A DNA stretch of 62,793 nt from a virus. Every line of letters starts with the position of its first letter. Within the stretch, counting starts at the first letter, position 1. The DNA lies in IMG/VR virus record IMGVR_UViG_3300035659_000011, positions 1 to 62,793 of that record; one strand, written 5' to 3'. Below are positions 7,853-48,464 of this stretch, piece by piece. Under the pieces are notes generated by a model that did not search any database, had not been told where the DNA came from, and saw only the letters and a list, made by a program, of their open reading frames with translations. The translations under genes were made by a program, and so were the position numbers.

Positions 7853-10114
7853 TTAATTGTAAAATACTTTGCTCCCTAATTTAGCATCTTTCCTAACATT
7901 TATCATACTTGAAAATGACTCTTTCAACTCTGTTATATGCGACACTAACATCACTTTCTTATAGTCACTCTCTATAAATCTCATAATCTCAATAAATTGA
8001 TCAATACCCTCTTGATCTAATGCTGCTATTCTCTCATCAATAATCAATGTCTGACTTCGTTTACCGGAACGCTTTGTCAACAAGAATGACAATGACAACA
8101 ATATTGAAAATACTATTCTAACAGTTTCACCACCACTATACATATTCAACAATCTTGACGGCTTACCCTTCTGGAATATAACTACATCTAACCCTCCTTG
8201 CTTCTTCAACTTACCAGATTTAGTCACTGGATCTAAGTCAAACTTAACTTGCAATTCTGTATTACCCGTAAACTTTGACAAAAATTCGTTAGTCTTTGCT
8301 TCCAATAACGGCACATTATCATTAATGATATCCTTTTGAATACCGTTTTTACCAAATGAAAAACTCAATTCAGTACATATTCTAAGCTCATCTTGCAATT
8401 CAGCAATCTCAGTTTTTATTGTTTTGACGTCTTCAGCTGCTAAAGTTGCCTGTTCTAACTTTGATGTCAGTGAACCAAGTTTAGTGGAGCATTCAGTCTT
8501 ACCTTCAGTTTCAGTAAAAACATCACCATTTATAACTTTGATTTGTCGTTCAACTGTTACTAATTCAGTTGCAAAATCTGATGCTATATGCTTTTCAATT
8601 TCAGCTTTCTTATTTTCGACAGTATCAATCTCAGTCTTCATTGATGCAATTCTTTTATCTAACAACTCTTTTGACAATGTCAATTCGTCAACTTTAGTTC
8701 TATACTTAATCTTTGTCTTTGGCATCTGCTCTTTTGCAACTTTGATCTGATCCAAATTACTTATAGCTGTTGCAAGTTTTGATGTTAATGTAGATTCACG
8801 ATCAGTTCGTTTGATGATAGTTTCTAATTGACCATCAAGTTCAGTAATACTTTCTCTAGTAAAAGTCAAATCCTTTTGTACTTGTTCTAATTGACTATTA
8901 TACTTAGAAATGACTGCATCAAGCTCATTAATTGTCTTTTTCTTATTAACATCTGACAATTTATCGCAAGTCTCTTCTGTAATTGGACATATAGCGCCAG
9001 CTTTTTCAATTTTCTTTTTCTTATCAGTTATTGCTCTTATATTAGTATTGATCTCAGTTTGCTTCTGAATCAATGTTTCTTTTGAAGTAATATGAGACGT
9101 TAACTTCTCTTTAATTGCTGGCATCTTTGCTTTTTCAACAGCAATTGCTTTCAATGATTCTTGATGTTTAGCTTTTTGATCTAAATACTCTTGTTCTGAA
9201 TCAATTGATTTCTGTAATTGTTCAATAGCCTCAATACCCTCGTCAATTGTCGTCTCAATTGCAGCAGACTTTTCAATTTCATCTTTCTCTAATTGCTGTT
9301 TTTGTTTTTTCAATAATTGAATTTGTTGTTCGACATCAACTAATTGTTTTTTATTTTGCTCTTGTTTTGATATACTGAGATTTATTTGTTCTCGTTTTGT
9401 TTGCAATTTAGCAAGATGTTCTTGAAGATGCTTAATCGTATTTGTGTGAGTTTGAATTTGTGCAGACGTTAATGATACATTAGTCTTAATTGTCGATACT
9501 TGCTCGGCTAACTGTACTTTGTCATTTAGTACAATAGACTTTGATTGAATTTTGCTATCTGCTTCTTTAGCTGATTCTTTTGCAATTTCTGCTGCTTGTT
9601 CATATATTTGACTACCTAAAAGATTGCAAAACAGTTCTTTCCTATCAGAGGCATCACCTTCAATAAATGATGATTCTTCTCTCTGACCTAAAAATACACT
9701 ATTTGAAAATATGTTGTAGTCATAGCCTAATATATTAGATAGTAATTCGTCAGTCTTTCTTTTCGTGTCATCAGATATCAATCGCCACTTTACATCTTCT
9801 AGCTTTTCATTAACTTTGTCAATATACAATTCATTTATTGTGCCTGCCTTACCATATTGTCTGATCTTCTTATATCGCGAGTTATCCATCAAGAAAATTG
9901 TTTCAACTCTTAGTGTCAAGCATTGATCGTTAATGTAGTCAGACAATGATTTGCCTCGACCGACGCCCCACCAACAAAATGGTACTGCTTCTAACAATGC
10001 ACTCTTACCTTCACCATTACTGCCAGCTATCAATAACGTGCGATAAGGTCTGAAATCTACTTCTTCATCGATGTAACTCATAAAGCCTTGGAGTTTGATT
10101 TTTTCGATAATCAT
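7853..10114 (-). CDS. sbcC: SbcC/Rad50-like recombination ATPase (T4 gp46 type)
   Basis: The 753-residue protein has an ABC-type P-loop near the N-terminus (GSNGEGKSALLEAV), about 500 residues of coiled coil with a central hook region, then the signature motif (LNMYSGGETVRI) and Walker B (TLIIDERIAALD). The hook is unusual: CPITEETC has a Cys-x6-Cys spacing rather than CxxC. With SbcD (18531-19700) it should form an Mre11-Rad50-like nuclease that processes DNA ends for recombination-dependent replication. An AAGGA ribosome site precedes ATG 10114. Confidence 0.93.
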   Translation of the reverse strand: MIIEKIKLQGFMSYIDEEVDFRPYRTLLIAGSNGEGKSALLEAVPFCWWGVGRGKSLSDYINDQCLTLRVETIFLMDNSRYKKIRQYGKAGTINELYIDKVNEKLEDVKWRLISDDTKRKTDELLSNILGYDYNIFSNSVFLGQREESSFIEGDASDRKELFCNLLGSQIYEQAAEIAKESAKEADSKIQSKSIVLNDKVQLAEQVSTIKTNVSLTSAQIQTHTNTIKHLQEHLAKLQTKREQINLSISKQEQNKKQLVDVEQQIQLLKKQKQQLEKDEIEKSAAIETTIDEGIEAIEQLQKSIDSEQEYLDQKAKHQESLKAIAVEKAKMPAIKEKLTSHITSKETLIQKQTEINTNIRAITDKKKKIEKAGAICPITEETCDKLSDVNKKKTINELDAVISKYNSQLEQVQKDLTFTRESITELDGQLETIIKRTDRESTLTSKLATAISNLDQIKVAKEQMPKTKIKYRTKVDELTLSKELLDKRIASMKTEIDTVENKKAEIEKHIASDFATELVTVERQIKVINGDVFTETEGKTECSTKLGSLTSKLEQATLAAEDVKTIKTEIAELQDELRICTELSFSFGKNGIQKDIINDNVPLLEAKTNEFLSKFTGNTELQVKFDLDPVTKSGKLKKQGGLDVVIFQKGKPSRLLNMYSGGETVRIVFSILLSLSFLLTKRSGKRSQTLIIDERIAALDQEGIDQFIEIMRFIESDYKKVMLVSHITELKESFSSMINVRKDAKLGSKVFYN

Positions 10115-18530: not shown

Positions 18531-19700
18531 TTACATTGATTTTGCTTGTTTCAAAATCTCAATTCCTCGATCTATCATCTTTTCTTTTATATCACCAAAT
18601 CTTTCAGCATGCTTTTCAACAAACTTCTTAAGAGCCTCATCGGGCATATCTATACTTGTAATCTTATCAACATTCTCATCTATAGCATCGTCTGCAACTA
18701 CATTAATGTCAGCACTAGTGAAGTGCCAACAATTATCTCTCAAATATGATTCAATAACATCAAGTCTAATAGCCGAAAAATACGTCTGCTTGACATTTAC
18801 TTTCAACTTAACAATTGCATCTTGCAAATCTGTTGGATGAAATTTCTCTAACACATCTTTATAGTCATCTGACAAATTCAATGTAAATGTCACAAATCGT
18901 CTGTCACTAACAGGTATGAATTTGTCTGTACCTTTAGTGAATACGTAAAATCCCTTTTGTTCTGATTCTTCAGAGAAATCTACTCGACCTAATGAACCTA
19001 CATGTCGCACAATGTCATTAAATTCTTGTTGTTTATGTATGTGACCCAAATAAACTTTAGTCCAGTCACCTTCTTCAAACAATTTAAGTTCTATCTTGTT
19101 CTCATTTTCATCAGACGACATATCCAAATCAAAACTATTTCCAACAACAGACTTATCTGTGCCAAAATGACCAAAAAACAGCTTGTACTTAGCATCACTT
19201 GTCTTTGTTTGCTTATTGAAATCTTCAATACACTTTCTTTGATATGCCAAAAACTCTTGAGGTGTCAATAATCCTTGTTCACCTCTATTGACAAATGGTA
19301 AAAAGTATAATTCTTCTTTACCCAATCTTATGACTGTCGGTGATGAAACTATAGTCAAACCATCAATAACATCTGATAATTCTTCCATTTCTGACATTGC
19401 ATGAGCACCGTCAGACGAAGTTGTCATATCGTGATTACCGGTCATCAATATGGTAGGAACGCTGGCTTTTATGAGGCACTTGAGTCTTGCAGCAAATTGT
19501 TTTCTGATTTTTGAATTTGGGTGTTTGACACGGTAGATGTCACCAGCTATTACATAAGCAGATTGCTTGTCAATAGCAAAATCAATAGTTTGATCTAAGT
19601 TGTAGAGGAAGTCAAGTAGTCGAGTGTTCAAACCACTTACTGGATCAGTTTTTCCGTAACTATAATCACCAATGTGTGGATCTGATACAACTGTAATCAT
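18531..19700 (-). CDS. sbcD: SbcD/Mre11-like nuclease (T4 gp47 type)
   Basis: Calcineurin-type phosphoesterase motifs appear in order: VSDPHIGD, AGDIYR, MTGNHDMT and LGHIHKQQ, with FFGHFGTD in between. It would be the nuclease partner of SbcC (7853-10114). A copy of the repeated promoter-like motif lies just upstream (19710-19732), so this gene may start its own transcript. Confidence 0.92.
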   Translation of the reverse strand: MITVVSDPHIGDYSYGKTDPVSGLNTRLLDFLYNLDQTIDFAIDKQSAYVIAGDIYRVKHPNSKIRKQFAARLKCLIKASVPTILMTGNHDMTTSSDGAHAMSEMEELSDVIDGLTIVSSPTVIRLGKEELYFLPFVNRGEQGLLTPQEFLAYQRKCIEDFNKQTKTSDAKYKLFFGHFGTDKSVVGNSFDLDMSSDENENKIELKLFEEGDWTKVYLGHIHKQQEFNDIVRHVGSLGRVDFSEESEQKGFYVFTKGTDKFIPVSDRRFVTFTLNLSDDYKDVLEKFHPTDLQDAIVKLKVNVKQTYFSAIRLDVIESYLRDNCWHFTSADINVVADDAIDENVDKITSIDMPDEALKKFVEKHAERFGDIKEKMIDRGIEILKQAKSM

Positions 19701-31775: not shown

Positions 31776-34769
31776 TCATACTTCTTTTGCCATCTCGTCG
31801 TACTTTGCAAGTTTTTGTTCTTGTTCTAATGTCTTCTCATATACATTGCCAATACAACAAATGTCAAGCAAATCTATGAAGATACGACCCATATACTCAC
31901 TAGTTTCTGCATCACCAACTAAAATATTGTTCATCTTAATAACTTCTTCAACTGGTACTTTCTGATATTTACCAGTCACATGATTCCAAACAAAAGCAGT
32001 CTTGCATCTACGATTATAACATGGTATCCGAATTTTGACAATATTGAATTTTGAATCAGTCAAAACTGTGTAGTAATAACTGTTATTATTCTTGCTAGTT
32101 TTTTGTACAATACTAGTAATTATACCCCAAACAGTTCGTTTCATATTTGCTTTTGGCTGTACTAACTTTGTCAACGTTTTAGCATTTAATCTACCAACTT
32201 CTTCTTTATGTAGATCAGATAATTTTGTTCGCCAATCTAAACTATATGATTCTACAAATTGTTCATGTTCATATTTACGGTCATCATAGTCAACATCGCG
32301 TTCCCATTTACTATCTCCCCTTAAGTCTTTATAGTATTTCTGTAATATCTCATTCTGCGTGCCAAAACAATCAAATACATGTGCGTTTATCAAAGCTAAC
32401 ATTGCCGATTTACCGACTTTCTTTATTTGTGAAGTCTTATCCCAAAAATCACCAAATGATGTAAATGGTTGCGTTCTCTTAATCACATCAATAATTGCTG
32501 GTCCGACACCCATAATATGACCCAAACCAAATATGATACTATTACTCTCACTATCTATAGTAAATCCCTCTTTTGACTTATTGATATCAGCCGGAACAAT
32601 ACTAATATTCTTTCCCATAATCTCAGAGAAATAATCAGTGAACTTCTCTTTCGGCGAATTTGTTAGCAACACTACATAAAACTCTAATGGATAATAAATC
32701 TTAAACCACATCATTTGATAACTGAGAATAGTATACGCTACAGCGTGGCTCTTATTGAATCCGTAGCGCGCAAATGACACGCAGCTTTGCCACCATGACT
32801 CAGCAACATCAGCCTTAAGGCCTCGCTCAACGCAGCCATTGATGAATTTATCATGTATTTCTTTTCGTTGTTTAGCCTCTTTATCTTTTGCATCTTTATC
32901 TCTAATAGACTTCATCAAATTCTTACGAACAGTATCAGTCAAGTCCAATGGAAATCCTGCTACTATATTACACAACCTCATAACATCTTCTTGATATACC
33001 AATATACCAAAACTATCTTTCAAACATCTTTCAATCAACGGTGATCCAAAATCGAATGACTTACCATTCTTGCGAGCAGCATATTCATGATGCATGCCCA
33101 TATCTAATGGTCCTGGCCGACCCAATGCAGTTGCACTAGTAATGTCATTGAATGTTGTTGGTCTAATCTCTTTCAACAACGACTTCATTAAATTACTATT
33201 GTGTACTACAAACCCATTTGCAACATAGTTGTGATGTTGTCTATCTGTAAACCCAATATCGTATACTAACTTTTCACCAATAAAATCAATACGCGTTATC
33301 GGTACAAACACATAACGTTTTTTGAAAAATCTAAACTGGCTTAACACCTGAGGCATGCAAGTTCGTTTACCTTCACAAATGCATTTCTTACAATCAGCTC
33401 CAACACCCTTTGACTCAATAGTCTTATCATAGACATTACAGTAATATTGAGTTCTACATCTTTGTTGATCAATAAGTACTTTGTCACCGACTTTCAATTC
33501 AGATAATTTCTTGAAACCTTGGAGCGTATAATATTCGTGAGTCATTGTTGATTCAAGGCACTTATTATCATGATCAACAGTGACTCTATAAACTTCTTTA
33601 AGCTGTTCTTTCATTGCATAAATTGTTTGTCGAACTTTCTTCTTACGTTTAAGATCAACACAACCAATTTTGCGAACCCTCTTACTTGAAACATAAATGT
33701 CTTTGTCTCTAAAGTCTCTATATAGTTCTCTTATTCTGTAATTGCCAATCCATGAATCACCAGCAATACATTCAAACTGGAAAATACCATTTGTATCTGT
33801 ATGTCTAAATCTATCATATATGACTTCATTACCATCTAATGGTAATTTACTTGAAAACTCTTCATACAATAATGATGTTATTTGACCACGATCAATTGAC
33901 TCAAGACTGAAATCAGCTTCTTTACTATACAGTTTTCGTAATCGAATCAAATCCAATATCTCTTTTATGATTGTTAGAGTCTTTAGTCCTAAAATATCAA
34001 ATTTGATGAAGCCTGAAGATTGTAAGTCTTTTCTAGTAATACCATCAACCCAACTTGTTATGAGATCACCTTTATGTCTCATTAAAGGTATTGTCTCATC
34101 AATTTTTGTAGGAGTTGCGACAACTCCTGCAGGATGTTTTGTGAGGTGTCGTAATTGACCTTTGAGTTTGAATAGTACTTCACGAACTTGAGGATATCGT
34201 TCAAGATATTTTCTTATTTCATACAAGTCATTTCTGAAACCGTCTTCACCAGGTTCTTTTGCAATGGCAATATCAAATTCTTCTTCAGTCATCGCATCTA
34301 CATCATCACCAAGATTTTTAACAACTTCATTAGTGTCATTCAAATCAACATCAAAAATTCGAGCTATATCTCTCATGACCATTTTCATTTTCATTTGGCC
34401 ATAAGAACCAATAGCTGCTACGTGGTCACTACCGTATTTGTTAATGAAGTATTTGACGACGTCTTCACGTTCATTTATACTGAAATCAGAGTCAATGTCT
34501 GGAAATGAAGATTGCTTTTTGATTTTGATAGCTATATTGTTTTTGATAGGATCAGAGTCTGAGATACCAAGTAAGAAGTAGACTAATGAGCCATGCTTTT
34601 CTATTTTAGTTTTGTTTTTGATTAGGTCAACAACATAGTCTTGAATGTTTTGTACATCAATGTTGGTCAATTCACGTTCAAGTTGTTGTATGTATTGAGT
34701 ATTGTCTAATGACAATTCTTTCAGTTTTCGTTCACAAAGGTATTGGACATAATCTAGTTTTGTAATCAT
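31776..34769 (-). CDS. dnaE: DNA polymerase III alpha, C-terminal part, with mini-intein
   Basis: This part carries the palm catalytic motif FPDIDSDF, HPAGVV, fingers motifs (FIKFDILGLKTL; GIFQFE-SNLMK after intein removal; ATALGRPGPLD; ILVYQEDVM; ARYGFNKSHAVAY) and the C-terminal OB-like region. I use ATG 34769 (MITKLDYVQYLCERKLKELS); a TTG 39 bases upstream is the alternative. The N-terminal about 100 residues are a degraded second copy of the palm segment that also ends the N-terminal gene (35687-37534). The two halves must associate to form the replicative polymerase. Confidence 0.9.
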   Translation of the reverse strand: MITKLDYVQYLCERKLKELSLDNTQYIQQLERELTNIDVQNIQDYVVDLIKNKTKIEKHGSLVYFLLGISDSDPIKNNIAIKIKKQSSFPDIDSDFSINEREDVVKYFINKYGSDHVAAIGSYGQMKMKMVMRDIARIFDVDLNDTNEVVKNLGDDVDAMTEEEFDIAIAKEPGEDGFRNDLYEIRKYLERYPQVREVLFKLKGQLRHLTKHPAGVVATPTKIDETIPLMRHKGDLITSWVDGITRKDLQSSGFIKFDILGLKTLTIIKEILDLIRLRKLYSKEADFSLESIDRGQITSLLYEEFSSKLPLDGNEVIYDRFRHTDTNGIFQFECIAGDSWIGNYRIRELYRDFRDKDIYVSSKRVRKIGCVDLKRKKKVRQTIYAMKEQLKEVYRVTVDHDNKCLESTMTHEYYTLQGFKKLSELKVGDKVLIDQQRCRTQYYCNVYDKTIESKGVGADCKKCICEGKRTCMPQVLSQFRFFKKRYVFVPITRIDFIGEKLVYDIGFTDRQHHNYVANGFVVHNSNLMKSLLKEIRPTTFNDITSATALGRPGPLDMGMHHEYAARKNGKSFDFGSPLIERCLKDSFGILVYQEDVMRLCNIVAGFPLDLTDTVRKNLMKSIRDKDAKDKEAKQRKEIHDKFINGCVERGLKADVAESWWQSCVSFARYGFNKSHAVAYTILSYQMMWFKIYYPLEFYVVLLTNSPKEKFTDYFSEIMGKNISIVPADINKSKEGFTIDSESNSIIFGLGHIMGVGPAIIDVIKRTQPFTSFGDFWDKTSQIKKVGKSAMLALINAHVFDCFGTQNEILQKYYKDLRGDSKWERDVDYDDRKYEHEQFVESYSLDWRTKLSDLHKEEVGRLNAKTLTKLVQPKANMKRTVWGIITSIVQKTSKNNNSYYYTVLTDSKFNIVKIRIPCYNRRCKTAFVWNHVTGKYQKVPVEEVIKMNNILVGDAETSEYMGRIFIDLLDICCIGNVYEKTLEQEQKLAKYDEMAKEV
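33198..33770 (-). other. mini-intein in DNA polymerase III alpha
   Basis: This in-frame 191-residue insert starts with Cys (CIAGDSWIGNYRIREL) and ends VANGFVVHN before the +1 Ser. It splits the invariant FQFE-S block of the polymerase. Splicing blocks A (CIAGDSWI), B (TVDHDNKCLESTMTHEYY) and F/G (YDIGFTDRQHHNYV then HN) are seen. There is no endonuclease domain, so it is a mini-intein, possibly maintained without homing. It contains a CxxC/CxxC-like stretch (DCKKCICEGKRTC). Confidence 0.93.
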
Positions 34770-34800
34770 GATATTTTCTATACTTATTGGTGCTACTGAA

Positions 34801-35127
34801 TTACTCAAACATTATTACTTTGAATTTTCGAGAAGATAGTTTACTGAAATCAAGATCAAAATCACTTTGATCCAGAATGAATGTGTGTTTGTTTACAAAA
34901 GTATCTCCATTAATATCAAACGCATTAAGCTGTCGAATTACATAATCAACTGCAAATTGCATTTCAAGAAACTTAACTAAATCAACGTAATTATTACATA
35001 CTGTTGCTCTTAAGCAGAATAATCGAATGATATATTGAAACCAAAAATTAGACTCTTTAAGTCCAGTGATTTGTATAAAATCAGATATTGTTACATCTTT
35101 ATTGACTATCAAAATGATTTTTTTCAT
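34801..35127 (-). CDS. hypothetical protein between polymerase halves, 108 aa
   Basis: The product starts MKKIILIVNKDVTISDFIQI and is mostly hydrophobic helix plus strands. The short overlap with a possible TTG start of the polymerase C-part suggests coupling. No motif is recognised. Its place between the halves makes an accessory role possible. Confidence 0.6.
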   Translation of the reverse strand: MKKIILIVNKDVTISDFIQITGLKESNFWFQYIIRLFCLRATVCNNYVDLVKFLEMQFAVDYVIRQLNAFDINGDTFVNKHTFILDQSDFDLDFSKLSSRKFKVIMFE

Positions 35128-35686: not shown

Positions 35687-37534
35687 CTATTCATTAAGCT
35701 TGATGAGTCTATTCTTTGACCATTCATCAAAATCTTCGTCCATAAACAACTCAGCTTTATCTTCAATCTCTTTGAATGTCGGTACTGACATATCATATAT
35801 AGCCATACTTCGTGACATACTCAAAAATCTCTCGAACAACAAATTAAACTTCAATGGATCGATATTTGTAATATCTAGAAGATAACAGACGAGAGACCCA
35901 GCAGCTGATCCGCGAGCACTCCCTACGACAACGTTATTATTTTTTGCATACTTAATGTAATCTGCTACAATTACAAAATAATCGGCCATCTCCGTCCTTC
36001 TTATAACGCTCAATTCTGTTTTAACTCGCTTTACATGCTCACTATTTTCTTCATACCAACTGTCTTCTGCTTTTCTAGTCCAACCTTCGCGAACCATTGA
36101 TACCATATAGTCATAACTACTAGCGAAACCTTCAGTCTGTATCTTTGGTAACTTCTCTTTCGTATCCCATTCCCATACTTCAACTTTATTTGCTAACTTA
36201 ATTGTATTGTCAAGAGCTCTTGTAAAAGTCTCAACATTAACGTATTCATAATGACCTTGGTCAATATATGTATCTATCATCTGGTGACGATCTTTGAACC
36301 AAAAACCCTTAGTAGAAAACTCCCAAACTTTCTTGAATTTCTTCTTACCAGTAACAATATCAAATATCTCTTCAAATGTAATCCCTAATTCTTTATTTGT
36401 TGCAGGACTAAATTCAGCAAATCTGTCAAGCTCAATAAAATTGTTATAAACAGATCGAACGTGAGCTTGAGTTATATCTTCACCAATCTCAACTAATATC
36501 TCTGAAATCACATTCATCCTCTTCTTATCTTTCATCGTAACTTGATCGCCACCATCATCTTTTGACCCGAGCATTAATGATATCTCTTGAGCTTTAGCAC
36601 CACTCTCATCTAAATAATGAACGTCATTTGTTACAATCACTTCTATACTCAACTCTTCAGCAATTTCTAGTAATAATTTATTCACAACTCTTTGTTTGTC
36701 AATCTCAATCATCATAATTTCAATATAGAAATCTTCACCAAAAATGTCTTTATACATTTTGGCAGCTAACAATCCTGCTACTTTTGCATCTTTCTCATTA
36801 TCGTGTTTCAACATTTCATTGTTAATGATTCCTGCAAGACATGCAGATGTAACAATGATGCCTTCTTTATTTTCAGACAAAAATTGCAATGACGTTCGAG
36901 GTTTGTAATAGAAACCATTTCTAGCAGCATCACTAACAATTTTAGTAATGTGTTTACGACCAGTTTCATTCTTTGCTAACAATACAATGTGCTGATTTCG
37001 CTTTAATGCATCTCGACTGTCTGACAATTCTTTGTCTTGAGCTTGTAATTTTTTAAGATGCTTGTCAAGTTTTTGTTTAACTTCAGAATAATCTAATACA
37101 GTAATATCTTCAAACTCTGCAGTTGGCATCTCTAGTATTTGCCTGAAGAAATCAACATTTGCTACAAACAACACTTTATTTGCTTTTTTATGCTTGATTG
37201 AATTCTTTAATACTTTAACTTTTTCATCTATCTTATCGAGTGCCGTATTGAAAGCTTCAACTTCTTCTCGTTTATTTTGCAGATACATTTCTACACCAAC
37301 AATTGGCTTCAAATTCACAGATCTACAATACATAAAGAATGAAGGATGAGCACCAATACTTCCATGATCTGTGATTGCTAATGCAGGCATACCAAGCTCA
37401 ACTGCTCGTTTAGCATATTGGTTTGGTTTGCCGATACCGTCTTTGAGCGAAAAGTCACTATGTAAGTGTAGGTGAATGAAATCTTTTTTCTCACCAGTTT
37501 TATATAATGCTTGTCTAATTTCTTCTTTGTCCAT
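35687..37534 (-). CDS. dnaE: DNA polymerase III alpha, N-terminal part (PHP domain)
   Basis: The PHP domain opens the protein (DFIHLHLHSDFSLKDGIGKP; PALAITDHGSIG; KPIVGVEMYL). The palm start ends it: NNNVVVGSARGSAAGSLVCY and IDPLKFNLLFERFLS (about 534-570), then a non-conserved tail of about 45 residues. The usual PDIDxDF follows only in the other gene, so the polymerase is cut within the palm. There is no split-intein C-terminal signature (no trailing Hint block), so joining by protein splicing is not expected. Confidence 0.92.
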   Translation of the reverse strand: MDKEEIRQALYKTGEKKDFIHLHLHSDFSLKDGIGKPNQYAKRAVELGMPALAITDHGSIGAHPSFFMYCRSVNLKPIVGVEMYLQNKREEVEAFNTALDKIDEKVKVLKNSIKHKKANKVLFVANVDFFRQILEMPTAEFEDITVLDYSEVKQKLDKHLKKLQAQDKELSDSRDALKRNQHIVLLAKNETGRKHITKIVSDAARNGFYYKPRTSLQFLSENKEGIIVTSACLAGIINNEMLKHDNEKDAKVAGLLAAKMYKDIFGEDFYIEIMMIEIDKQRVVNKLLLEIAEELSIEVIVTNDVHYLDESGAKAQEISLMLGSKDDGGDQVTMKDKKRMNVISEILVEIGEDITQAHVRSVYNNFIELDRFAEFSPATNKELGITFEEIFDIVTGKKKFKKVWEFSTKGFWFKDRHQMIDTYIDQGHYEYVNVETFTRALDNTIKLANKVEVWEWDTKEKLPKIQTEGFASSYDYMVSMVREGWTRKAEDSWYEENSEHVKRVKTELSVIRRTEMADYFVIVADYIKYAKNNNVVVGSARGSAAGSLVCYLLDITNIDPLKFNLLFERFLSMSRSMAIYDMSVPTFKEIEDKAELFMDEDFDEWSKNRLIKLNE

Positions 37535-41073: not shown

Positions 41074-41409
41074 TTATAGCTCCTCAAAGAAAGGGTAGAA
41101 CGGATTATCTTTGTGTTCCAACTTGTCTTTAATAAAGATCTCTAAACCTTTCCCAGGGTTGTGGTACTCCAAAGTATCAACTGTAGCTGAGAGACCTACT
41201 TGATTTGCTGCTGTAATACAAGCAGGCATAGCTTTGTCGTACTGCTCTTTGAATGTAGTGACTCCCAATATGGCACTCAGCTCCCATATCAAACATTCCT
41301 TAAAAGCTATAGCCCCAGCATAAGCTGCTGCTATTTTGTCCCGCGGGGTTTTGTATACTCTGGAGTTAATGTCCACATATACAGGCTCTGGGTGTAGTTT
41401 TGGATACAT
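41074..41409 (-). CDS. hypothetical protein, 111 aa
   Basis: The product starts MYPKLHPEPVYVDINSRVYK and has an Ala-rich helix (DKIAAAYAGAIAFKEC). A near-perfect promoter (41429-41457) and AAAGGAG lie upstream, so this gene starts a transcript. The function is unknown. Confidence 0.65.
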   Translation of the reverse strand: MYPKLHPEPVYVDINSRVYKTPRDKIAAAYAGAIAFKECLIWELSAILGVTTFKEQYDKAMPACITAANQVGLSATVDTLEYHNPGKGLEIFIKDKLEHKDNPFYPFFEEL

Positions 41410-41428
41410 AGTTTACTCGACTCCTTTG

Positions 41429-41463
41429 AATATAGTCTCTTATACTAAAAATGTCAATAGATT
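41429..41463 (-). promoter_or_regulatory. promoter with sigma-70-like boxes; motif copy 2
   Basis: On the minus strand TTGACA (41452-41457) is 17 bases from TATATT (41429-41434). It also holds the repeated block AATCTATTGAC, seven bases, GTATA at 41441-41463. It sits about 20 bases before the 41409 start. Confidence 0.65.
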
Positions 41464-41474
41464 AACGAACTAGT

Positions 41475-41963
41475 TTAAACTAACATATCAAACATTGTAA
41501 ATAATTTAGTAAGATAAGAATATACAAATACAGTTATATTAGCAGATTTGTCAGGTGCATTGCCGGCGATATTTAATGTTTCTACATGGTTTTCATTTAA
41601 CCATGTGCAAACTCTCTCAAATTCTAAATCTGCAATACTTGAGAAATTTCTAATTGGTATGTCCAAATAAGGTTTATTGCATAATTTGATAGCTTTCAAT
41701 GTACATTTTTCACCCGAAGAATTCCAATCTGAAGCAAACCTAATTGTCGCGTCTGATTCATTTACATTTTTGAATGTTCGTTCTTTGTAATCACCAAATT
41801 CAATCAAATTATATTGTTTTGCACGATCAACATTTGGTCCACTTAATGTCAAACAGCCTATAGGTATAAACCCACTAGTTTCAATGTTACAATGTCGTGC
41901 AGCCATTAAGCCGGCAGTATCAGCACCGTCTTGTCCACCAGATATGACTTTTTTCAATATCAT
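41475..41963 (-). CDS. SLOG-family putative nucleotide-binding protein (YpsA/Mo-carrier-like)
   Basis: The N-terminus KKVISGGQDGADTAGLMAAR matches the Gly-rich GGQTGAD loop of the SLOG/YpsA (PF12694-like) superfamily. NVNESDATIRF and the NKPYLDIPI strand follow at family positions. SLOG proteins bind nucleotides or related ligands, and some sense them in conflict systems. The role here is unknown. A copy of the repeated promoter motif lies just upstream. Confidence 0.8.
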   Translation of the reverse strand: MILKKVISGGQDGADTAGLMAARHCNIETSGFIPIGCLTLSGPNVDRAKQYNLIEFGDYKERTFKNVNESDATIRFASDWNSSGEKCTLKAIKLCNKPYLDIPIRNFSSIADLEFERVCTWLNENHVETLNIAGNAPDKSANITVFVYSYLTKLFTMFDMLV

Positions 41964-41973
41964 AGATGATTAT

Positions 41974-41996
41974 ATACTGAAAATGTCAATAGATTT
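41974..41996 (-). promoter_or_regulatory. conserved promoter-like motif (copy 3 of 3)
   Basis: AATCTATTGAC, seven bases, then GTATA (minus strand), eleven bases upstream of ATG 41963 and just after the T-rich end of the structured RNA. TTGACA is present, and TATGAT lies 19 bases further on. Confidence 0.5.
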
Positions 41997-42015
41997 AATG
42001 CTAATTCAAAAAAAC

Positions 42016-42106
42016 GACAAAATAAAAGCTCGTAATTGGAAGGAAAAACGAGTTCTCACCTAACTCGTACCAGTCCTTACGGATACTGACTTCCAATCAC
42101 GAGCTA
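42016..42106 (-). ncRNA. structured RNA, three-way junction with terminator tail
   Basis: The minus strand forms an outer stem of 15 Watson-Crick pairs plus one G-U (42090-42105 with 42027-42042). Inside are a hairpin CAGUauCC-GUAA-GGACUG closed by a GNRA tetraloop and a second perfect 7-bp hairpin ACGAGUU/AACUCGU. A UUUUAUUUUG tail follows. The G-U pair favours minus-strand RNA, since the plus strand would have an A-C mismatch. The inner ACGAGUU could also pair with the outer AGCUCGU arm, allowing a switch. It lies right after the stop of 42104-42733. Confidence 0.75.
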
Positions 42107-42733
42107 TATTGATTGTCTCATCAACTTATGCACAATTTTTGAAATGTCGCGATTGCCCATCATCAATTGTCGCAACGCCCAATTGTAAAATGAAGTATAA
42201 CACGGCCTGCAAAACACGCACTTTGATTCATCTGATACTACACCTATTATTTTGCCTTCAAATATGTTACCAAACATTGTTCGACGTTGTTCTTGTGACC
42301 ACGGATGACCATCAACTTCGTCTTTTAGTTCCTGACAAATACAGTTAGTTAGATCTGTACTCATCGTTTTACGCATAAATTCGTCTGCATCAGCAATGTT
42401 AGCAGAGCAGATACAACATTTTCTATCTCGAGGTCTTTCAGCAAATGAAAATAATGATGTGACTTTAGTATATGGCATGAATGCATATAACAAGTGAGTC
42501 ATGAATTTTCGTGATCGTTCATTCGTCCACATGTTGTTAAGTTTGACAAATTCTTCAGAATCATCTGGTCGGCTATAAGCAGAAGAAGGTATTCTCTCTG
42601 ATTGTCGCTTTTCTTGCTCTCTTTTCTTTGCTTCTTCAACTAACGCTTGCTGCTTTTCTTTCTCAACTCTTTCAATATCTGTCGTTGCTACAACTCCTGA
42701 CTTAAGCAATGCTTCTGCAAATGATGTAGCCAT
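42104..42733 (-). CDS. Cys-rich hypothetical protein, 209 aa
   Basis: An N-terminal Lys/Glu/Gln-rich helix (about residues 20-50) is followed by a Cys-rich region: CCICSANIADADEFM, NCICQELKDE and CVFCRPCYTSFYNWAL. This suggests two zinc sites in a treble-clef-like fold. Its stop lies inside the outer stem of the structured RNA. The function is unknown. Confidence 0.7.
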   Translation of the reverse strand: MATSFAEALLKSGVVATTDIERVEKEKQQALVEEAKKREQEKRQSERIPSSAYSRPDDSEEFVKLNNMWTNERSRKFMTHLLYAFMPYTKVTSLFSFAERPRDRKCCICSANIADADEFMRKTMSTDLTNCICQELKDEVDGHPWSQEQRRTMFGNIFEGKIIGVVSDESKCVFCRPCYTSFYNWALRQLMMGNRDISKIVHKLMRQSI

Positions 42734-42737
42734 AATG

Positions 42738-43034
42738 TTAACTCTTTCTAAGCTGCGGCCATTGAGGGCCCATTCTTTCTCTTACATGTTTACATATCGC
42801 ACAATTGCATTCTTCAGATGCGGGAGTTTCTGCCCAACCCCGAGAATCACTTTCATTTTCTGTCTTCAAACGTTCAACGAACTGATAACGCTCCCCTATT
42901 TTCTTCAACACTTCATGCTCCAGATCTTGTAACTTTACTCCCAGGTCATAGAGAGTTTTCTTCTCATCATCAAGGACATGAATGAGTTCCCAAAAGGCTT
43001 CTGAAAGTTCTCCACTATAATGAGAGTCTGTCAT
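42738..43034 (-). CDS. hypothetical protein with C-terminal Cys motif, 98 aa
   Basis: A helical N-terminus (MTDSHYSGELSEAFWELIHV; coiled-coil-like GVKLQDLEHEVLKKIGERYQ) precedes an ECNCAICKHVRERMG motif with three Cys and a His. It overlaps the membrane gene upstream as ATGA. The role is unknown. Confidence 0.65.
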   Translation of the reverse strand: MTDSHYSGELSEAFWELIHVLDDEKKTLYDLGVKLQDLEHEVLKKIGERYQFVERLKTENESDSRGWAETPASEECNCAICKHVRERMGPQWPQLRKS

Positions 43035-43264
43035 GATTGCATTTCCTTTTCAAATTCAATCGCATCCCATAAAACCAGCCCACACAAATAAAGTGACTCT
43101 AACAACGTCATAATACAACAATATACTATAATAAAGACACTGTGATTAACAGTAACAGCTATCAAACTTGCAACCCATAATGCCATGATTGTTAGTGATA
43201 AAATTGTTCGAAACGGTGCAACGAAAAGCGGTCGACAGGTTCTAAAAAATTTGTCTTTCATCAT
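43031..43264 (-). CDS. two-span membrane protein, 77 aa
   Basis: Two hydrophobic spans (TILSLTIMALWVASLIAVTV and FIIVYCCIMTLLESLYLCGL) are separated by a very short polar turn, with a basic N-terminus (DKFFRTCRP). It would insert in the inner membrane as a hairpin. Coupled overlaps on both sides place it in the helicase operon. The function is unknown. Confidence 0.65.
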   Translation of the reverse strand: MMKDKFFRTCRPLFVAPFRTILSLTIMALWVASLIAVTVNHSVFIIVYCCIMTLLESLYLCGLVLWDAIEFEKEMQS

Positions 43265-44892
43265 TTACCCTTTGAAAATTGACACGCTTCTATGAACCAG
43301 TCAGGCAAAATACTTCTATTACGTTGAATGAATCCTCTAGCACCACTGTCAAAGATATATGCTGTTCCCCAGTCTTCTTCTGATCTAAATATCCGGCCAT
43401 AACTTTGTACTAATGTCAAACAAGTTTGCCAATTGTACCAGTCAGGATCAATCGCCATCCTTCTAGATACTTGCTTATCGCCAAGGTATAGATATGGTAT
43501 CTTAACTATTACTTCCCATCGAGCCAAATCATCTTTAAGATCAAGACCTTCTGTCATTGATGGTGACACAAGTACGCTTGGTTCATCTGACAACATGAAC
43601 TTCTGTAGCATTTTCTCACGAGTCAATGTATCATGAAATATCAATCGAGAGTCTTGAAGATTTTCTTGTATATAATTTGCAATTTTATACGAGTGACAAT
43701 GAATTAATCCTCGCTCGTTCTTATGATAGTTTAGTGCTTTCTTCAAGTCATTAACAATTTCAGGTAATGTGTCGTTAATGTTAGCCATGTTCATGTAGCC
43801 AGAGTTAGTGAAGAATATCTTTCGATTTTCTGCTGGAAATGTTGACGGTACTCGAATAAAGGCAGCTTCGTCAGGTTCAATGCCTAAACTATGACAAAAA
43901 CTCTTTTTGTCAAGAATAGTAGCTGACAGATATAATCGTTGTTGACCATACTTTAATAGGCAATCAGGTGCAAACATGTCAATTGTCAATGGTCTGAAAG
44001 CTATCCGTTTCATCTTTAGCTTTTCAGTTTTTTCAACTGTGAATACCCATTCTACAGTGCCAAGAGTATTCAAAAACGTCGTCATTCGCCGATAAAGTCT
44101 ATCAATATCTTCAACTTGAGATACTAATTCTGTCGCTTCGCCTGATAATTTCTTAAATTCATGAGATACTCGATCAATACCAACTCTATATCGATTCAAC
44201 GTGTCTAGTTCTGCATTTTTCTTACCCAATATCGTCTTTACTTGTTCAATATTGTCTTTCATCCACACTTCATACTGTTCCAGTGACTCATATGTCGGTA
44301 TTGACACTGGATATCCAGCACGCTTAAACATGAATTCAGACAGCAGAAACTCAACCTGACCCATCAACTCGCTTTCAAGTGAATGCGCTTCGTCGCATAT
44401 CAGCAGCTTACGTTCTCCAAATGCTTTGCTTGGATCGCAATCAGTGACGTTCAAAAAATATGAATAATTCATCAGTGCTATCTGTGCTGCTATCGTTCGC
44501 TTTTTTGCAATTTGATAAAGGCACGTGCCATCTTTATAGCATTGCTTTTTTGCAGGTTCATAACACTCATTGCACATTGTAGGTTCGCCCAAAAATGTAC
44601 ATTCATAATTGCCTCGACCCTTCATCACAGATATTCTAGGATCTTCAGTAAAATCTTTAGTATATTGATCTTGCAAAATCTTTTGTGATGTAAGACAATA
44701 AGAATTCTCAGACCACAATCCACATGCAATAGCTACCGGAGACTTTCCTGATCCTGTAGGCATCTCAATGATAATGTCTTTGACACCATCAACAAGACAT
44801 TGCTGTATTTTATCAATAGTCTCTCGTTGATGAGGTCTATATGAAGGGAATAAGAAAAAGTCAGTTATGTTTTTTTGATCAAATCGTACCAT
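43261..44892 (-). CDS. DinG/XPD-type superfamily 2 helicase with Fe-S motif
   Basis: Helicase motifs are present: Walker A (EMPTGSGKSPVAIA), Walker B (LLICDEAHSLE), a C-terminal LVSPSMTEGLDL and QSYGRIFRSEEDWG. Between motifs I and II there are cysteines (YECTFLGEPTMCNECYEP, KQCYKDGTC) that match an XPD/DinG iron-sulphur domain. It would unwind DNA with 5'-3' polarity, like T4 Dda/XPD families. It is followed directly by a 3'-5' exonuclease gene, so the two may act together as in DinG-exonuclease fusions. Confidence 0.92.
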   Translation of the reverse strand: MVRFDQKNITDFFLFPSYRPHQRETIDKIQQCLVDGVKDIIIEMPTGSGKSPVAIACGLWSENSYCLTSQKILQDQYTKDFTEDPRISVMKGRGNYECTFLGEPTMCNECYEPAKKQCYKDGTCLYQIAKKRTIAAQIALMNYSYFLNVTDCDPSKAFGERKLLICDEAHSLESELMGQVEFLLSEFMFKRAGYPVSIPTYESLEQYEVWMKDNIEQVKTILGKKNAELDTLNRYRVGIDRVSHEFKKLSGEATELVSQVEDIDRLYRRMTTFLNTLGTVEWVFTVEKTEKLKMKRIAFRPLTIDMFAPDCLLKYGQQRLYLSATILDKKSFCHSLGIEPDEAAFIRVPSTFPAENRKIFFTNSGYMNMANINDTLPEIVNDLKKALNYHKNERGLIHCHSYKIANYIQENLQDSRLIFHDTLTREKMLQKFMLSDEPSVLVSPSMTEGLDLKDDLARWEVIVKIPYLYLGDKQVSRRMAIDPDWYNWQTCLTLVQSYGRIFRSEEDWGTAYIFDSGARGFIQRNRSILPDWFIEACQFSKGK

Positions 44893-46768: not shown

Positions 46769-47113
46769 TCAGTAATTTTTGTCGTGAACGCGTTGAACGT
46801 TCTTTTTATTTTTGTCAACGAATGCTGCAATAAGATCTTCAGCATTCATCCCCCAACAGCAGGCCAAGTTGATTACAAAATGTTGAATATCGGCTACTTC
46901 TTCTCTAACATTCTGAATGTTGACAGGCTTTTTTGTTTTCTTATATGTCTTGAAATTTATCTCCCTTAACAACTCGTGAGTTTCTTCAGACAAGTACAAT
47001 ATCATGTCTCGTGTGTATGTTTCTTTTTCATCAATTGTCATTTTATCAAAATCGTGACCATGCAGTAATTGAAGGTTCTTTTGTAAATCAAATAGTGTTT
47101 GAAGGTCTGCCAT
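46769..47113 (-). CDS. MazG-like all-alpha NTP pyrophosphatase
   Basis: The MazG metal motif is visible: YLSEETHELLREIN, then about 20 residues later VREEVADIQHFVINLA, and a C-terminal KNKKNVQRVHDKNY. At 114 residues it resembles dimeric dUTPase/dCTPase-type enzymes. It would cleave a dNTP to dNMP. A dCTPase or dUTPase role is inferred from context. Confidence 0.85.
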   Translation of the reverse strand: MADLQTLFDLQKNLQLLHGHDFDKMTIDEKETYTRDMILYLSEETHELLREINFKTYKKTKKPVNIQNVREEVADIQHFVINLACCWGMNAEDLIAAFVDKNKKNVQRVHDKNY

Positions 47114-47625
47114 TATGCCACCTTGACGTCATCTATTTTTAAGTTAGTGTATATTGCTCTATTGAAAATTTGAATCTCTATATTTAACGTGTTTATGTCT
47201 TTGATATCGATAACTCGTCCAGATAAGCCTTTACAATGGCCACCGACAATCTCAACCATATCACCAATCTTATACTTAAAAGCACTACTGATTTTTATAT
47301 TCCCTGCAATTGCTCTAACGACTTCCATTTCTTCGTCTCTAATATATAAAGCGTGGCCCAAGCCCAAAAATCTCATTACAAAGCTGACTTCGAGTACTGC
47401 TGATTGAATATCACTGTCGAGATTGGCACGGATGAATAAATAGCCAGGGTAGACAGTTATATTGCGAACGATTTTTTTGCGGCGAACTTCGTAGATTTCT
47501 TTTGCAGTAGGTAGCAGTACTTCATCAATTTTTTTATCTTCTACTAATGATCTGAGTCTATCTGCAATATAAAATTCTTTTCCTTGGACGACAAAAAGCG
47601 CATACCATTTAGAATTTTTAATCAT
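47113..47625 (-). CDS. nusG: NusG/RfaH-like transcription factor
   Basis: An NGN domain is followed by a KOW domain. SKWYALFVVQGKEFYIADRL is the NGN opening, YPGYLFIRANLD the core, and KIGDMVEIVGGHCKGLSGRV the KOW motif. Length (170 aa) is normal for NusG/RfaH. It could help RNA polymerase read through terminators on phage operons. It lies next to a phage sigma factor (47664) and MazG-like enzyme. Confidence 0.92.
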   Translation of the reverse strand: MIKNSKWYALFVVQGKEFYIADRLRSLVEDKKIDEVLLPTAKEIYEVRRKKIVRNITVYPGYLFIRANLDSDIQSAVLEVSFVMRFLGLGHALYIRDEEMEVVRAIAGNIKISSAFKYKIGDMVEIVGGHCKGLSGRVIDIKDINTLNIEIQIFNRAIYTNLKIDDVKVA

Positions 47626-47663: not shown

Positions 47664-48464
47664 CTAAATTGCGACGAGTCGCTTATCTGCTACCAAATCA
47701 AATTCTTCAATTGTCTCGTGCCTTATTTTCTTTATCGCTCTGGCAATCTTTCGCTTTTTAATTGCTGATATAGTGGGTTCTGATTTATTGTACTTTTTTG
47801 CTAATTCTTTACCAGTAATAAGACCTTGGATGTCACTTCTTATGAATATGTCATATTGCATTGGTGTCAATTCTTTTTTACATTTGTTCAATATAGCCTC
47901 TGCAATCACTGCTTCATCTTCTGATATATCATCAACTTTGTCAGCTATTATATCACTTAAAGTGGCTCCAGAACTATCATCATTGTTAACCGGTTTACTT
48001 AAACTGTCAGTGAAATAATGAGGACTTAATCTTTTAGTCACTTTTTTACCATTTGCGTCTTCAACACAAATTTCAACCGTGCGCTTTTTCTTGCGAAGTT
48101 CAACGAGGACTCTGTTTACAGTCTTTTCAAGTGCAGTATACATGTATGTAGAAAATTTAGTGCAAAAACTGAAATCAAACTTTTCTGACATAGCTTTATA
48201 TAGACAGCATAAACATCGTTGGTATAGATCATCTTCATTATAAATATCAAAACCATGTCTGGACTTTGATATTCGCCACCGTACATACTTCCTAATGACA
48301 GTATCCCATGAAGCTTTAGTTTCATTTTCTCTTTTGCGCATTAGCAACGTCTTAAATATCTGTACTCTCTTAGAATCTGTAGTTTGAGGACTTCGATATT
48401 GAGCAATTAACTGCTCATCAGTTATATAAGTAGGTTTAGAAACCGTAGCGGTTGAATTTAACAT
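47664..48464 (-). CDS. sigma-70-family factor
   Basis: Region 2 is clear (NEDDLYQRCLCCLYKAMSEK, then FDFSFCTKFSTYMYTALEKT), and region 4 has an HTH (MQYDIFIRSDIQGLITGKEL; KKYNKSEPTISAIKKRKIAR). A very strong AAGGGGGG site precedes ATG 48464. It probably redirects host RNA polymerase to phage promoters. Together with NusG (47113) it forms a transcription block directly downstream of the primase. Confidence 0.88.
   Translation of the reverse strand: MLNSTATVSKPTYITDEQLIAQYRSPQTTDSKRVQIFKTLLMRKRENETKASWDTVIRKYVRWRISKSRHGFDIYNEDDLYQRCLCCLYKAMSEKFDFSFCTKFSTYMYTALEKTVNRVLVELRKKKRTVEICVEDANGKKVTKRLSPHYFTDSLSKPVNNDDSSGATLSDIIADKVDDISEDEAVIAEAILNKCKKELTPMQYDIFIRSDIQGLITGKELAKKYNKSEPTISAIKKRKIARAIKKIRHETIEEFDLVADKRLVAI

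What the first reader, a model, noticed from the sequence alone, without database searches (positions are those of the whole stretch)
42016..42106. Three-way-junction RNA with a GNRA loop and an alternative pairing
A 16-bp outer stem, a GNRA-capped hairpin and a second 7-bp hairpin fit together with almost no loose bases. The outer arm AGCUCGU and inner ACGAGUU are complementary, so two folds are possible. The element ends in a U-rich tail next to a promoter for a SLOG gene. A riboswitch-like attenuator, a small RNA or a terminator with a protein site are open options.
Basis: seen in the sequence. Interest (0 to 1): 0.65.

Follow-up and report, generated by a model that had tools for sequence, protein, structure and literature searches.

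The report
Phage transcription terminator with branched hairpin
A short stretch of DNA in a large phage, right behind the stop codon of one gene and ahead of the next gene's own start signal, codes for an RNA hairpin with a uracil-rich tail that most likely just ends transcription; its forked tip is unusual but not shown to matter.

Summary
The fold exists. On the minus strand (the coding strand of every gene here), 42105-42027 folds into a perfect 16-bp stem, one G-U included, enclosing a GUAA-capped hairpin and a 7-bp hairpin, followed by UUUAUUUU. The whole element is far more stable than shuffles (z -5.5). That significance comes from the outer stem: the 47-nt interior is no more stable than chance (12.5% of shuffles equal it), and the 7-nt alternative pairing is a roughly 1-in-20 coincidence and 17 kcal/mol worse. 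The 5' arm starts inside the stop codon of a 209-aa gene; the U-tract follows the GC-rich stem base directly; the next gene (SLOG) has its own promoter-like motif behind the element, one of three copies in the window. This is the layout of an intrinsic terminator between two transcription units. No copy or homologue was found in three related phage records, Rfam, or pattern scans of IMG/VR and GTDB genomes, so covariation cannot be tested. A riboswitch or attenuator is not supported: both folds leave a hairpin in front of the U-tract. Verdict: real but near-ordinary; an intrinsic terminator with an unusually long, branched loop.

The parts
42104..42733 (-). 209-aa upstream gene, Cys-containing protein of unknown function; its TAG stop (42106-42104) overlaps the first two bases of the stem
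   Evidence: ORF list; no Pfam or PHROG match; a 24% identical 207-aa homologue in relative record G003
42090..42105 (-). 5' arm of the outer 16-bp stem, AGCUCGUGAUUGGAAG
42070..42089 (-). inner hairpin 1, 4+3 bp with a UA bulge, GUAA (GNRA) loop at 42080-42077
   Evidence: interior not more stable than chance
42048..42068 (-). inner hairpin 2, ACGAGUU-AGGUGAG-AACUCGU, followed by UUUUC; terminator-like by itself but weak (-6.2 kcal/mol)
42027..42042 (-). 3' arm of the outer stem, CUUCCAAUUACGAGCU
42007..42026 (-). U-rich tail UUUAUUUUGUCGUUUUUUUG, the predicted transcript release region
   Evidence: sequence; only on the coding strand
41973..41995 (-). promoter-like motif AATCTATTGACATTTTCAGTATA upstream of the SLOG gene; same motif at 41463-41441 and, with a variable spacer, at about 19732-19710
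41475..41963 (-). SLOG (circularly permuted YpsA) gene, next transcription unit
   Evidence: Pfam PF12694, E 2.6e-27

Best explanation
The element is a factor-independent (intrinsic) transcription terminator, read on the minus strand, that ends the transcription unit whose last gene is the 209-aa ORF (probably helicase - small membrane protein - 98-aa - 209-aa) and insulates it from the SLOG gene, which starts from its own promoter-like motif. As RNA polymerase moves through, the two inner hairpins form within the 47-nt spacer and bring the arms of the 16-bp stem close together; closing of the GC-rich stem base (AGCUCGU/ACGAGCU) behind the polymerase while it transcribes UUUAUUUU releases the transcript at about 42024-42016. 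Shown here: the stem, its strand, the U-tract, its position in the stop codon, the promoter-like motif behind it, and absence of a known RNA family. Inferred: that termination happens, its efficiency, and that the inner hairpins help closure; selection on the inner hairpins is not shown.
For: All genes in this region lie on the minus strand, and the U-tract is only on that strand. The 5' arm begins in the stop codon of the upstream gene (distance -2). The other minus-strand stem-plus-T-tail sites in intergenic gaps (38973, 50176, 29805) lie 8-37 nt behind stop codons and look like ordinary terminators, and such sites favour the coding strand. The stem is far above chance. The SLOG gene has its own motif AATCTATTGAC-N7-GTATA after the element, one of three in the window, all just upstream of ATG codons. 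Predicted stepwise folding ends in the 16-bp stem as soon as the 3' arm is out. A second long-loop stem with a T6 tail lies 1 nt behind a stop codon in the relative G002 (L048:10424-10546).
Against: The hairpin is atypical: TransTermHP's canonical limits are loop 3-13 nt and stem-loop at most 59 nt, and observed terminators have a median loop of 4 nt (PMC12207403); this one has 79 nt with a 47-nt branched loop. The U-tract is interrupted by an A. There is no transcript data and no homologue, so no covariation. The relatives do not keep it: in G003 the gene homologous to the 209-aa ORF runs into the next gene with no terminator.
Confidence: 0.82

Rival explanations
1. A stable 3'-UTR-derived small RNA: the terminated, structured 3' end is cut from the mRNA or made from an internal promoter and acts on its own. 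This does not exclude termination.
For: About 80 nt, compact fold and U-rich 3' end, as in many 3'-UTR sRNAs (general knowledge); z -5.5.
Against: No homologue or second copy, no Rfam match, interior not more structured than chance, and few unpaired bases to pair with a target.
Confidence: 0.1
2. A processing site: the long, partly stacked double helix is a substrate of host RNase III, which cuts the polycistronic mRNA behind the 209-aa gene, as at intergenic sites of T7-like phages.
For: A 16-bp helix that could stack on the 7-bp GNRA hairpin gives about 20 bp between two genes (fold; RNase III preference from general knowledge).
Against: The flush U-tract and the separate promoter-like motif for the next gene are not needed for this; the continuous helix is 16 bp; no conservation.
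Confidence: 0.05
3. A riboswitch-like or protein-controlled attenuator that switches between two folds and so controls read-through into the SLOG gene.
For: Alternative pairing AGCUCGU/ACGAGUU exists and is the predicted intermediate at simulated transcript lengths of about 76-96; the phage encodes a NusG-like protein (47113-47625) that could act on termination.
Against: The alternative fold is 17 kcal/mol worse, its length is expected in about 4.5% of pair-shuffled elements, and it leaves a hairpin in front of the same U-tract. The element follows a stop codon, not a promoter, and SLOG has its own promoter-like motif. No riboswitch family matches.
Confidence: 0.03
4. A small mobile or repetitive palindrome (REP-like or miniature insertion) that landed behind the gene.
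For: 16-bp inverted repeat with an unrelated interior; the five-gene stretch 41074-43264 has no counterpart between helicase and metallopeptidase in relatives L003 and L004.
Against: Single copy in the window and none in three relatives; outer-stem pattern absent from IMG/VR and GTDB collections; no target-site duplication seen.
Confidence: 0.03

Closest known systems
Bacterial intrinsic (Rho-independent) terminators
   Same: GC-rich stem base directly followed by a U-rich tract, on the coding strand, at the 3' end of a gene and before the next promoter-like motif
   Different: Loop of 47 nt with two inner hairpins and 79 nt in total, against usual loops of 3-13 nt and hairpins of at most 59 nt (PMC12207403)
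Canonical terminators of the same phage (38973-38948, 29805-29773, 50176-50149, minus strand)
   Same: Strand, closeness to the stop codon, T-rich tail
   Different: Those have 10-14 bp stems with loops of 4-8 nt and no branching
G002 element L048:10424-10546 (relative phage)
   Same: Long stem (14 bp), long structured loop (95 nt), T6 tail, 1 nt behind a stop codon
   Different: No sequence similarity, a different interior fold; itself unexplained

Membership tests
Intrinsic transcription terminator | Stable stem with G-C pairs at its base, 3' arm flush with a U-rich tract on the transcribed strand | tested here: met
   16 bp, 7 G-C pairs; tail UUUAUUUU
Intrinsic transcription terminator | Lies at the 3' end of a gene or operon | tested here: met
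   5' arm starts in the stop codon of 42104-42733; separate promoter-like motif for the next gene
Intrinsic transcription terminator | Canonical size (loop 3-13 nt, stem-loop at most 59 nt, TransTermHP limits) | tested here: not met
   Loop 47 nt, 79 nt in all. This is a limit of prediction software, not a defining mechanistic requirement, so it marks the element as atypical rather than excluding it
Intrinsic transcription terminator | RNA polymerase stops and releases the transcript there | not testable with these tools
   No transcript data
Riboswitch / attenuator | Two folds of comparable stability, one with and one without the terminator hairpin | tested here: not met
   -35.2 against -18.4 kcal/mol; a hairpin precedes the U-tract in both
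Riboswitch / attenuator | Conserved aptamer or match to a known class | tested here: not met
   No relevant Rfam match even at E up to 5; no homologues
Riboswitch / attenuator | Lies in the 5' leader of the gene it controls | tested here: not met
   The SLOG promoter-like motif (41995-41973) lies downstream of the element
Conserved structured ncRNA | Covariation across homologues | tested here: inconclusive
   No homologue found by covariance model, BLAST or pattern scans
Mobile palindromic repeat (REP/MITE-like) | Several copies | tested here: not met
   One copy
RNase III site | Cleavage within the double helix | not testable with these tools
   Helix length permits it; no data

The most novel reading that the evidence does not exclude
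A nested, translation-gated double terminator: because the outer 5' arm begins inside the stop codon, a ribosome sitting there would mask it, leaving only the weak inner hairpin with its five Us; with the ribosome gone, the strong outer stem forms. Termination and read-through into the SLOG gene would then depend on translation of the upstream gene, or on the phage's NusG-like protein.
Probability: 0.05. Interest if true: 0.5.

Novelty: new member of a known kind. Interest (0 to 1): 0.17.

Why it matters
As a terminator it is ordinary biology, useful mainly for annotating transcription units of this large-phage lineage. Two small points go beyond that: a strong terminator-like hairpin with a branched loop of this size falls outside the limits of standard terminator finders, and a similar long-loop site occurs in a relative. 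The recurrent motif AATCTATTGAC...GTATA gives a testable phage promoter.

Tried and rejected
Searched for homologues with a single-sequence covariance model in the window, three related phage records (86, 330 and 416 kb) and further loci: only the element itself, plus its own reverse strand. DNA BLAST of the flanking 1.4 kb and tblastn of the 209-aa protein in 50,697 phage records: none. Exact patterns of the inner hairpins in IMG/VR gave 7 and 1 hits, which do not fit the model; outer-stem patterns gave 2 (chance) and 0 in IMG/VR and 0 in GTDB genomes. Rfam: no match; a permissive search gave only a meaningless SNORD50 hit at E 1.5. Followed the gene instead: the 209-aa homologue in G003 has no element behind it; the SLOG homologue in G002 and the Maribacter phage SLOG locus do not carry it by covariance search. 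Coding potential: only spurious ORFs of 31 and 59 aa overlap it. Literature searches for branched or three-way-junction intrinsic terminators in phages found nothing relevant in the held library, which is not proof of absence. Collections may leave out records very near the window, so null searches are limited.

Full report
What was claimed.

Observation. It is there, on the minus strand, which is the coding strand of all genes around it. 42105-42027 folds into a 16-bp stem, a 20-nt hairpin with a GUAA loop and a 2-nt bulge, and a 7-bp hairpin, with 1 and 5 unpaired junction bases; the tail reads UUUAUUUUGUCGUUUUUUUG. The whole is much more stable than shuffles (z -5.46, 0 of 200). Stems of at least 14 bp with a T-rich tail are rare in shuffled sequence (1 hit in 20 shuffles of the whole window) and here occur on the coding strand (5 raw hits, nested registers counted separately, against 0 on the other strand).

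What carries the significance. The outer stem does. The interior 47 nt alone folds at -11.6 kcal/mol against -8.6 +/- 2.4 for shuffles, and 12.5% of shuffles do as well. So the branched tip is a correct prediction of the minimum-energy fold but not evidence of a selected three-way junction. The alternative pairing (AGCUCGU with ACGAGUU) is real but 4.5% of elements with the same structure and shuffled pairs have one at least as long, and the alternative fold is 17 kcal/mol weaker. It does appear as an intermediate in a stepwise minimum-energy folding of the growing transcript, at simulated lengths of about 76-96 nt, before the outer 3' arm is made. In that alternative the second half still forms a hairpin (AACUCGU/ACGAGCU, about -5 kcal/mol) in front of the same U-tract, so it would not work as an antiterminator of the main site; at most it would compete with the weak inner hairpin (-6.2 kcal/mol) and its five Us.

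Context. The 5' arm begins inside the TAG stop codon of a 209-aa ORF (42104-42733). Downstream, the SLOG gene (41475-41963; Pfam cpYpsA, E 2.6e-27) has its own promoter-like motif, AATCTATTGACATTTTCAGTATA at 41995-41973, after the element. The same 23-mer with one change lies at 41463-41441 in front of the next gene, and AATCTATTGACTGTAATTGTATA lies in front of the gene 18531-19700. Three copies, all on the coding strand and each just upstream of an ATG, point to a real phage promoter or operator. The element therefore sits between the end of one transcription unit and the start of the next. Other stem-plus-T-tail sites in gaps of this window look like normal terminators 8-37 nt behind stop codons.

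Relatives. The helicase gene upstream (43261-44892) identified three related phage records, at 82, 70 and 69% identity. In two of them (L003, L004), helicase and metallopeptidase are near neighbours and the five genes 41074-43264 are not between them; in L002 they are also not found. Whole-record searches found a 207-aa homologue of the 209-aa protein in G003 (24% identity), followed directly by an overlapping gene with no terminator, and a SLOG homologue in G002 (45%). The covariance model of the element finds nothing in any of them. Outer-stem and inner patterns find no true copy in IMG/VR or GTDB genomes. No Rfam family matches.

Mechanism. The best-supported reading is an intrinsic terminator: a strong, GC-based stem flush with a U-rich tract, on the coding strand, at a transcription-unit boundary. 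The atypical feature is size: standard finders allow loops of 3-13 nt and hairpins up to 59 nt, and measured loops have a median of 4 nt (PMC12207403). Folding of the two inner hairpins would shrink the effective loop to a junction with six loose bases, which may let the arms meet in time; this is inference. A similar long-loop stem with a T6 tail lies 1 nt behind a stop codon in G002 (L048:10424-10546), so long-loop sites are not unique in the lineage, but the two share no sequence.

Verdict. Observation confirmed; interpretation partly supported (terminator yes, riboswitch no). A member of a known kind with an unusual loop; low interest.

Noticed in passing
window 51842-51219, minus strand: A tmRNA gene (Rfam 86.7 bits) whose T-loop (GGGTTCGATT) is interrupted by a group I intron (103.7 bits); ARAGORN finds no tmRNA here, presumably because of the intron. 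Group I introns in tmRNA T-loops are known (general knowledge); a phage case may merit a look.
   Followed up: partly
window 31776-34808, minus strand: DNA polymerase III alpha subunit with an intein splicing domain match at residues 386-537 (PF14890, 36.3 bits against cut-off 35.8). A separate ORF that by eye looks like the N-terminal part of a polymerase III alpha lies at 35687-37534.
   Followed up: no
window 41995-41973, 41463-41441, about 19732-19710, minus strand: Recurrent motif AATCTATTGAC...GTATA directly upstream of three genes (SLOG, 111-aa ORF, metallophosphoesterase); the TTGAC/GTATA spacing does not fit sigma-70 promoters, perhaps a phage-specific promoter. No close matches in three related phage records.
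   Followed up: partly
window 47113-47625, minus strand: Phage-encoded NusG-like protein (PF02357, E 2e-14) next to an ORF (47664-48464) that looks sigma-factor-like by eye but has no Pfam match.
   Followed up: no
L044:7636-7928 (relative record G002): RNase P class A RNA match below the curated threshold but significant (55 bits, gathering 100, E 3e-14), among more than 20 tRNA genes of a 330-kb phage record: a possible phage-encoded RNase P RNA.
   Followed up: no
L048:10424-10546 (relative record G002): 14-bp GC-rich stem enclosing a 95-nt structured loop with a T6 tail, 1 nt behind a stop codon; no Rfam match. Long-loop terminator or small RNA.
   Followed up: partly
L052:12636-12726 (relative record G002): Near-continuous long hairpin, about 91 nt, with tail TTTCTTTT, no Rfam match.
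   Followed up: no
L002:7654-7884 and 8657-8887 (relative record G001): The same 76-aa ORF appears twice about 1 kb apart just downstream of the helicase gene: a direct duplication or an assembly artefact.
   Followed up: no
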